Shown here one piece after another: positions 59,905-62,900 of a DNA stretch of 64,000 bases. Within the stretch, counting starts at the first letter, position 1; every line of letters begins with the position of its first letter. Under the pieces are notes generated by a model. That model was not told the origin of the DNA and made no database searches. It saw only the letters and a list, made by a program, of their open reading frames with translations. The stretch is from Prevotella sp. (GTDB taxonomy: Bacteria > Bacteroidota > Bacteroidia > Bacteroidales > Bacteroidaceae), in assembly GCA_015060485.1 (NCBI GenBank), contig SUYI01000002.1, positions 124,001 to 188,000 on the forward strand. Direction: 5' to 3'. The position numbers and the translations under genes are program-made.

Positions 59905-62900
59905 GAAGCGCCTTGTTTATTTCTCATTTCTCATTTTTCATTTCTCATTTAGTGTCAGTGCGGCTGACACTACAAAGCCCTGGACCTTCTGGTACTGGAT
60001 GTATGGCGCTGTATCAGAACAAGGTATCAAAGCCGACCTCAAGGCCATGAAGGATGTGGGATTGGGCGGCTGCTATTTGATGCCTATTCGTGGCGCTGCT
60101 GAGCGGCCTGAATACGAAGGAAAGGCTGATGCGCTGAGCGAGAACTTCTGGCGGATGGTAGACGTGGCGCTCATGCAAGCCGATTCTCTTGGCTTGGGAA
60201 TGGGCATTCACGTCTGTGACGGGTTTGCACTCGCTGGAGGGCCTTGGATATCGCCAGACGAGTCTATGCAGAAGGTGGTCTTCTGCGATACCGTTGTCAG
60301 CGGAGGTCATCATCTTTTCCAGATGCCGAAGCCCCAGCATTACGAAAACTACTATGAGGATATTGCCGCCTATGCCATTCCAATTAGTAATCATAAACAT
60401 CAAACATCAAAATTCAAACTTCAAACTTCCCCTGTGGTTACGGTGAACGAAAAGGGTGTTTATTGTGCCGACGAGCCCTGCTGGATTCAGTATGAGTTTG
60501 ACGAACCTACGGAGATTCGCTATGTCGAGATAGAGCCTTCGGGTACGAATATCCAGTGTCAGCGGATGACGGTCAAGGTGTCGCCCGACGGGGTCATTTT
60601 TTATACCGTCAAACAATTGATGCCCCCTCGTCAGGGTTGGCAGAACACGGGGTGTCATACGACGTTCAGTATTCCCCCGTGCCAGGTGAAATACGTCCGA
60701 CTGGAGTGGACGCCAGCAGGTTCGGAACCAGGTGCTGAGGATTTGGATGCCGCCAAGTGGAAACCTGTGTTGAGGCTGAAAGGAGTTAAGTTTGGCAGTT
60801 GGCCGGTAATCGACAATTGGGAGGGCAAGGCAGGCTATGTGTGGCGCATTGCCCCAGAGACGCCCGAGGTCGACCTGCCTATGGAGGAGTTCTTGCATCC
60901 TCACGATGTGGTGGCTTTCAAGATGCAGGGCGACTACGTGGACGTGGCGCTGCCCGAGGGTATGTGGCGCTTTCTGCGTATGGGGCACACGTCGACGGGT
61001 CATACGAATGCGACGGCTGGTGGTGCCAAGGGCTTGGAGTGCGACAAATTCTCGCGGAAAGCGGTAGAGAAACAGGTGGACCGTTGGTTCGGGCTTTTCA
61101 TGAATCGTCCTAACCACAAGGCCATCCAGTATCTGCACGTCGACTCGTGGGAGTGTGGTTCGCAGAACTGGAGCAAGAACTTTGCTCAGGAGTTTGAGTG
61201 CCGTCGTGGTTACGACATCATTCCCTTGTTGCCCCTCTATGCCGGCGTGCCGATGGCGGGAGGCGAAGAGGCGTTGCGCGATATTCGCAGGACCATCGAC
61301 GAACTGGTGAACGAAGTCTTTTTTGTCACGGTGGCGCAGAAGGCCAGGGAGTATGGTGTGCAGCTGTCGTCAGAGAGCGTTGCACCCACGATGGTGTCCG
61401 ATGGAATGGCGCATTATCGCTATGTGGACGTACCGATGGGCGAGTTCTGGCTCAATTCACCCACCCATGATAAGCCCAACGATATGCTCGACGCTATCAG
61501 TGGTGCACACGTCTATGGCAAGAATATCGTGCAGGCTGAAGGTTTTACAGAAGTGCGAGGCGTATGGGACGAGACGCCGGCGAGCATCAAGGCACTCCTC
61601 GACAGGAACTTTGCCTTGGGCATGAACCGCCTCTTCTTCCACGTGAACACCCATAACCCTTGGCTCGACCGCAAACCAGGTATGACGCTCGATGGAATCG
61701 GACTTTTCTTCCAGCGCGACCAGACGTGGTTCGCTGAGGCCAAGCCGTTCGTCGATTATATCACGCGTTGTCAGACGCTGCTGCAAAAGGGCAGGCCTGT
61801 GGTGGATATTGCTGTGTATACGGGAGAAGAGATTCCCTCACGTGCCTTAACGCCTGATAAGCTGGTACCGATGTTGCCTGGATTGTTTGGGGCAGAGCGT
61901 GTGGCGTCAGAACAAAAGCGCCTCGCCAATGTGGGACAGCCCATGGAGGAGTCGCCCGTGGGTGTGCGCCACTCTGCCAATATCTTCGACCTGAAGGACT
62001 GGATCAATCCTCTGCACGGCTATCAGTACGACTCGATGAACAAGGATGCCCTGCTGACGCAGCCCTTTAACTATAAGGTGCTGGTCATCCCTCAGGGTAC
62101 GTTGGTGTCTAAAGAGGCCAAAGCAAAGATTGCCCAATTGCGTCGACAAGGCGTGCAGGTGATCGACAAGCCCTACAAAGATTCCGTTTTCGAGAAGGTG
62201 GCTCCAGATGTCGTCCTACCTGATGGCATTGCCTATGCCCACCGTACCGGCGATGGTTTCGACATCTACTTCCTTTCGAACCAAACAGACCGGGCGCTGA
62301 CGTTCTCGCCTGCTTTCCGTCAGCACAATGGCGAAGCGGTGGTGTATCATCCGCTAACGGATGAGAGCTATGCCTTTGACGGCACCGTCTCGTTGCCGCC
62401 CTACGGCTCCGTCTTTATCACCTATGGGCTCTCTGAATATTCCCACGCTGGGAATAAAACATTCCCACACTGGGAACAAAATATTCCCACGCTGGGAATA
62501 AAAAACGGGCCTTGGGACATCTTTTTCAAGGAAAGCGGTATTTCTCTTTCGAACCAGCAGCTCTTCGACTGGAGCCAGCATGCTGACGAACGGATTCGCT
62601 ACTTCAGCGGACATGCCCGCTATACAACGACGTGGAAACTGAAGAAGGACGAGGTGCCTCAGGGGCGGGCGTGGCTCTCGTTCCCTAACGTGAAGGATAT
62701 TGCCCACGTGTGGATTAACGGCAAGGACTGCGGCATTGCCTGGACGGCTCCCTACAAGGTGGAGATCACAGGCGCCCTGAAGAAAGGCAAGAACACGGTA
62801 GAAATAGAGGTGGTGAACACGTGGCACAACGCCCTGCGAGGTGCTGACAACGGCAAAGCGCCCTACGAGGGCATTTGGACGAACGCCAAATATCGCACGA

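What the first reader, a model, noticed from the sequence alone, without database searches (positions are those of the whole stretch)
59920..59947. Second TTTCTCA-built signal peptide, in a GH106-like enzyme, read in a different phase
tttctca tttctca tttttca tttctca gives MKRLVYFSFLIFHFSFSVSA. It is the same heptamer as in 28805-28832 but in an unrelated protein and a different register, so descent of the peptide cannot explain it. A nonamer array sits immediately upstream (59878-59904), so the 5' end of this gene is almost entirely repeat-derived.
Basis: seen in the sequence. Interest (0 to 1): 0.85.

Follow-up and report, generated by a model that had tools for sequence, protein, structure and literature searches.

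The report
Signal peptides built from heptamer repeats
In a rumen Prevotella-like bacterium the export tag of a sugar-cutting enzyme is read from a short tandem DNA repeat, and this is one case of a wider pattern in which dispersed 7- and 8-base repeats supply the export tags of unrelated secreted proteins, so junk-like DNA may be a recurrent source of working protein parts.

Summary
Window 59920-59947 is (TTTCTCA)4 with one mismatch and encodes the hydrophobic core of the signal peptide (SP) of a GH106-family enzyme (59903-62965). The heptamer is dispersed through this genome (36 exact double copies, 0 in the reversed control) and lineage-restricted. In 1.157 Mb of the genome, period-7 arrays dominate (119; about zero at lags 4, 5, 10, 13). 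SP-coding DNA carries them at 49/100 kb, near the intergenic density (59) and ten times other coding DNA (4.6). About 5% of SP-like genes have an SP read from such arrays, from several unrelated units. GH106 relatives 75-90% identical in the mature enzyme have SPs read from other repeats, or from none. About ten SP genes also carry a complementary array in the 5' leader (predicted hairpin around the start codon; in GldN orthologs with different units); the window gene lacks this. How arrays spread is not shown. I found no report of repeats supplying SPs in the open-access papers searched.

The parts
59920..59947 (+). (TTTCTCA)4 tandem array encoding the SP hydrophobic core (FSFLIFHFS)
59903..62965 (+). 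GH106-family (alpha-L-rhamnosidase-like) exported enzyme, 1020 aa; SP MKRLVYFSFLIFHFSFSVSA by inspection
59878..59902 (+). imperfect nonamer array (AACGGATTA) between the GH2 stop codon and the GH106 start codon
59950..59972 (+). inverted repeat TAGTGTCAG TGCGG CTGACACTA (stem 9, loop 5) over the predicted cleavage site
28805..28832 (+). TTTCTCA-type array encoding the SP core of a 188-aa protein
28781..29347 (+). 188-aa ORF with that SP; weak TPR matches
36647..36675 (+). (ATTTTTT)n array encoding the SP core of a GH95 enzyme (36623-39022)
57868..57901 (+). GAAATGA (TTTCTCA-family, antisense) array coding an extra loop RNEKGEMSNEK in the GH2 gene 56913-59870
60395..60429 (+). AAACTTC heptamer array in a length-variable loop of the GH106 enzyme
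15817..15844 (+). TCTCTCA array (same family)

Best explanation
The SP of this GH106 enzyme is an ordinary-looking export signal whose hydrophobic core is encoded by a (TTTCTCA)n array, one member of several dispersed heptamer and octamer repeat families in a rumen Prevotella clade. Shown: dispersal, lineage restriction, period 7, concentration in intergenic and SP-coding DNA, and repeated exchange of SP type among close orthologs. Inferred: arrays arise and change by slippage-like unit turnover and are copied or re-seeded by an unknown route. They persist where they do little harm. SPs are such a site because the pyrimidine strand is stop-free and mostly hydrophobic in every frame, whatever the insertion phase. 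The result is recurrent replacement of SP cores by repeat DNA, with a sieve for tolerance doing the sorting. Export by this SP was not tested.
For: TTTCTCATTTCTCA: 36 hits in the genome, 0 in the reversed control. 36 of 120 same-genus genomes have it, up to 45 hits, reversed control mostly 0; in the phylum sample 29 of 250, with 1-2 hits each, near the control level. In 1.157 Mb: lag-7 arrays 119; density per 100 kb intergenic 59.4, SP 48.6, non-SP N-termini 10.8, other CDS 4.6; lags 4, 5, 10, 13 near zero. Genes with a 7/8-bp array in the first 90 nt: SP-like 18/329, non-SP 6/502 (p 5e-4), interior blocks 35/9818 (p 2e-14), hydrophobic interior blocks 2/1250 (p 5e-11). SPs come from TTTCTCA, CATTCTT, CAACTGT, TTATTGT, ATTTTTT and TTTTTACC types, on proteins as different as GldN, GH97, GH2, MACPF, DUF3108 and a redoxin-like protein. 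GH106 orthologs: best lag-k score 12/14 or more in 12 of 87 at lag 7 and 2 at lag 8, versus 1 at lag 4 and 0 at the other lags from 5 to 13. Tree: 14 changes between array and non-array SP, at least 12 forced by starred branches, none in the 25-row outgroup. Sense strand open in all frames, antisense with stops, for the five units checked.
Against: The route of dispersal is not shown. SP calls are a crude hydropathy rule and genes are longest ORFs, not curated; an array can itself make an N-terminus look SP-like. The sampled contigs all carry at least one TTTCTCA hit, which could raise absolute density, though less the SP/CDS ratio. Some GH106 arrays share register, so part of the counted changes may be unit turnover or exchange of SP types rather than new arrays. 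In complete genome G045 the TTTTTACC arrays are almost never SPs. The data do not exclude selection for particular arrays.
Confidence: 0.75

Rival explanations
1. The arrays are selected as nucleic-acid elements (leader-SP mRNA hairpins, promoter spacers, binding sites) and the SP sequence is a by-product.
For: Leader-to-SP complementarity score 13 or more in 10/329 SP genes, 0.7 expected from swapped pairs. RNA folds z -6 to -8.5 in four of them. GldN orthologs: 5/28 pair leader and SP arrays with five different units; swapped control 0 at that threshold. 17/74 intergenic arrays have a TAnnTTTG box 3' of the pyrimidine strand, 16 of them within 1-9 nt.
Against: The window gene has no leader complement (z +0.84), nor has the 28781 gene. 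DUF3108 orthologs with SP arrays have none. Most array-less GldN orthologs show no hairpin. A foldback origin would give the same complementarity without selection.
Confidence: 0.15
2. Arrays travel as parts of foldback (inverted) elements or SP cassettes: a purine arm gives leader, start codon and charged n-region, a pyrimidine arm gives the hydrophobic core.
For: Same-family inverted pairs in 1.157 Mb: 10 purine-first, 2 pyrimidine-first; 7 of the 10 flank an SP start. Three neighbouring unrelated genes on C26 share leader, n-region and array, two of them over most of the leader. Inverted pairs with TATGATTACC...GGTAATCATA lie inside CDS in G115. Antisense units read charged, with ATG in some.
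Against: No target duplications, ends or transposase were identified; the C26 genes could be local duplication; the window gene shows only one arm.
Confidence: 0.2
3. Phase-variable contingency locus: gain or loss of a unit switches the enzyme on and off by frameshift.
For: The unit is not a multiple of three, lies early in the gene and the enzyme is exported.
Against: Only four units, one of them mismatched. The identical protein is listed on 5 contigs, and the relatives with MKRLLYFLFLISHFSFSV-type SPs have SPs of one length. No frameshifted copy was seen among the listed hits.
Confidence: 0.06
4. Chance or amino-acid selection alone: any hydrophobic, T-rich stretch looks repetitive.
For: SP cores are F/L/I/S-rich and T-rich.
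Against: Periods 4, 5, 10 and 13 give about no arrays while 7 gives 119, and the same units sit in untranslated DNA; hydrophobic interior blocks are not enriched.
Confidence: 0.02

Closest known systems
Heptanucleotide simple sequence repeats of bacteria (survey of Mrazek et al. 2007, as cited in PMC4679880 and PMC4692102; cyanobacterial STRR)
   Same: 7-bp units, dispersed arrays of a few copies, mostly intergenic, lineage-specific.
   Different: Here several unit families coexist, and they are concentrated in SP-coding DNA as well as intergenic DNA.
TAACTGA direct repeats of Beggiatoaceae, Cyanobacteria and some Bacteroidetes (MacGregor 2015, PMC4679880)
   Same: Heptamer arrays near start codons; one strand with stops in all frames, the other open; in-ORF copies mostly at protein ends.
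   Different: Different unit. That paper's in-ORF section mentions no signal peptides; there most arrays lie just upstream of start codons, here they also encode the SP core.
G-rich GGGAATC / GGGGA(T/C)T heptamers of Xanthomonas and Nostoc (PMC4692102)
   Same: Highly iterated heptamers, often about four units.
   Different: Quadruplex-forming, intergenic; here T/C-rich and translated.
Simple-sequence contingency loci (phase variation)
   Same: A unit of non-triplet length within a surface or export gene.
   Different: Short, imperfect arrays; no length variation seen.
Rickettsia palindromic elements inserted in ORFs (from memory)
   Same: Small repeat-derived, partly palindromic inserts tolerated in frame, as in the GH2 loop.
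   Different: No homology tested; here tandem heptamers and SP sites.

Membership tests
Bacterial heptanucleotide SSR | tandem 7-bp units, two or more copies | tested here: met
Bacterial heptanucleotide SSR | same unit dispersed at many loci beyond chance | tested here: met
   36 hits vs 0 reversed control
Bacterial heptanucleotide SSR | mainly intergenic by density | tested here: met
   59.4 vs 4.6 per 100 kb in ordinary CDS; SP DNA is the exception at 48.6
TAACTGA-type repeat network | unit TAACTGA just upstream of start codons | tested here: not met
   unit is TTTCTCA and lies inside the coding sequence
Phase-variable contingency locus | length polymorphism among strains | tested here: inconclusive
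   same SP length in the relatives listed, 5 contigs with the identical protein; no within-population reads
Phase-variable contingency locus | long pure array | tested here: not met
   four units, one mismatched
Sec signal peptide | basic n-region, hydrophobic core, small residues before the cleavage site | tested here: met
   MKR / VYFSFLIFHFSFSV / SA-A by sequence; no dedicated predictor run
Sec signal peptide | directs export | not testable with these tools
   needs an export assay
GH106 glycoside hydrolase | match above the Pfam gathering cut-off | tested here: met
   PF17132, 405.9 bits vs cut-off 29
Mobile palindromic element (MITE/RPE-like) | defined ends, empty sites, target duplication | not tested
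   only inverted array pairs and a shared GGTAATCATA head were seen

The most novel reading that the evidence does not exclude
Foldback arrays of 7/8-bp repeats act as self-made signal-peptide cassettes: the purine arm supplies the leader, start codon and positive n-region, the pyrimidine arm supplies the hydrophobic core in any frame, and the pairing of the two arms in mRNA encloses the start codon and tunes translation. The cassettes spread among unrelated genes, so a dispersed repeat is a standing source of export signals and their control.
Probability: 0.15. Interest if true: 0.88.

Novelty: new variant of a known kind. Interest (0 to 1): 0.62.

Why it matters
Heptamer repeats are the commonest long simple repeats in many bacterial genomes according to the survey cited in PMC4679880, and are usually treated as intergenic noise or regulatory sites. 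Here they appear as raw material for a working protein part, with a simple reason why any phase works. That makes the evolvability and turnover of signal peptides testable by comparing orthologs, and helps explain why SPs of close orthologs differ so much in this clade. The GldN leader-SP complementarity with changing units is a lead on translational control of export genes.

Tried and rejected
A general conserved hairpin at the SP cleavage site: striking in GH106 orthologs (26 of 87 with a stem of 6 or more in one 30-nt bin, unrelated sequences), but genome-wide SP genes show little more than non-SP genes (10.4% vs 8.6% in that bin), so not taken as a general SP feature. Leader-SP pairing as the explanation for the window gene: rejected (z +0.84). 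SP use as a genus-wide rule for TTTTTACC: not so in complete genome G045. Counting every GH106 array as an independent insertion: rejected because of shared register. The paper searches on signal peptides with repeats found nothing relevant.

Full report
Observation. The array at 59920-59947 is real: TTTCTCA TTTCTCA TTTTTCA TTTCTCA (TRF period 7). Two-unit matches with up to two mismatches occur 11 times in the window against 0.66 expected. It encodes the core of MKRLVYFSFLIFHFSFSVSA in a 1020-aa ORF that matches Pfam GH106. The comparison array at 28805-28832 is in an unrelated gene, offset 0 versus 2. A nonamer array of 2.8 copies lies between the upstream GH2 stop codon and the start codon. 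A third array SP, (ATTTTTT)n, is in the GH95 gene at 36623.

Why phase is uninformative. Seven and three are coprime, so (TTTCTCA)n gives the circular heptapeptide FLISHFS in every frame with no stop, while its complement carries a TGA in every frame. The same holds for CATTCTT, TTTTTACC, ATTTTTT and TGCATTA: sense open and mostly hydrophobic, antisense with stops. An array therefore makes an SP-like core wherever it lands in the sense orientation, provided the joints stay in frame.

Dispersed and lineage-restricted. TTTCTCATTTCTCA occurs 36 times in this 3.94-Mb genome, 0 in the reversed control. Among 120 same-genus genomes 36 have it, some 10-45 times. In 250 genomes of the phylum hits are 1 or 2 per genome, near the control. 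CATTCTT and TTTTTACC doubles are likewise patchy in the genus: 32/60 and 27/60 genomes. Named relatives of the enzyme are mostly rumen Prevotella MAGs. TTTTTACC arrays also occur in a single-contig genome, G045, so assembly artefact is unlikely for that family.

Where arrays lie. In 1.157 Mb taken as stretches, arrays by lag show 119 at lag 7, about zero at 4, 5, 10 and 13. Density per 100 kb: intergenic 59.4, SP DNA 48.6, other N-termini 10.8, other coding 4.6. At gene level 18/329 SP-like genes carry a 7/8-bp array in the first 90 nt, against 6/502 others, 35/9818 interior blocks and 2/1250 hydrophobic interior blocks. The units differ and the proteins are unrelated. Samples of other genomes: 70-175 lag-7 arrays per Mb in four relatives chosen because they carry TTTCTCA hits, 0-20 in four others.

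Orthologs. GH106 relatives keep the mature enzyme but change the SP: TTTCTCA, TTTTTCA, ATTTTTT, TGCATTA, TTTTTACC and others, or no repeat. On a tree of 90 mature domains the SP label changes at least 12 times on well-supported branches, and arrays never appear in the 25-row outgroup. Several of these arrays share register against TTTAGTGTCAG, so part of this is unit turnover within an inherited array. In the neighbouring GH2 gene one loop is filled by different repeats in different relatives, and the GH106 loop at the AAACTTC array is length-variable too. This fits tolerance of repeats at permissive sites.

Leader complementarity. Same-family inverted pairs are mostly purine-first (10 vs 2), and 7 of the 10 flank an SP start codon. 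Complementarity between leader and SP exceeds swapped controls (10 vs 0.7 at score 13); four folds have z -6 to -8.5, the window gene +0.84. In GldN orthologs five have paired arrays of five different units; swapped controls 0. This may be selection for a hairpin or the mark of a foldback origin; the data do not decide.

Mechanism. Most likely: slippage-type turnover plus an unknown route of dispersal supplies arrays; selection removes them from most coding DNA; SPs, loops and intergenic DNA keep them. Steps shown are location, families, lineage restriction and ortholog turnover; steps inferred are how arrays spread and that the SP works as such.

Literature. PMC4679880 cites Mrazek et al. (2007) for heptanucleotides being the most abundant class of such repeats in most genomes, with a polymerase-slippage proposal, and notes that in-ORF TAACTGA arrays sit mostly at protein ends. 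PMC4692102 treats G-rich heptamers. Nothing on SPs built from repeats was found in the open-access library; subscription papers were not searched.

Noticed in passing
59950-59972 and GH106 orthologs L037-L122: Inverted repeat over the SP cleavage site with unrelated sequences in different orthologs (GTGTCAG/CTGACAC, CTCGCGA/TCGCGAG, GTTTTGC/GCAAAAC and others); 26 of 87 with a stem of 6 or more. Cause unknown.
   Followed up: partly
G000 C72:72607, C72:121590, C26:171421, C52:58243; GldN orthologs L286-L289, L298: Purine array in the 5' leader complementary to the SP array, predicted hairpin around the start codon, units differing between orthologs.
   Followed up: partly
intergenic arrays of G000: 17 of 74 have a TAnnTTTG box 3' of the pyrimidine strand, 16 of them 1-9 nt away, so arrays often occupy the upstream part of promoters.
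   Followed up: partly
62439-62503, 31173-31247, 22650-22704, 12011-12094: Tandem copies of about 21-22 bp small palindromes, one inside the GH106 coding sequence.
   Followed up: no
48498-48580: Perfect 23-bp tandem repeat, 3.6 copies.
   Followed up: no
57868-57901 and GH2 orthologs: One GH2 loop carries different repeat-derived inserts in different relatives.
   Followed up: partly
L206, L207 (G115): Inverted TTTCTCA arrays with TATGATTACC...GGTAATCATA inside coding sequences.
   Followed up: partly
L246-L255 (G255): A genome of the same class but another family has 28 lag-9 arrays and no lag-7 arrays in 200 kb.
   Followed up: no
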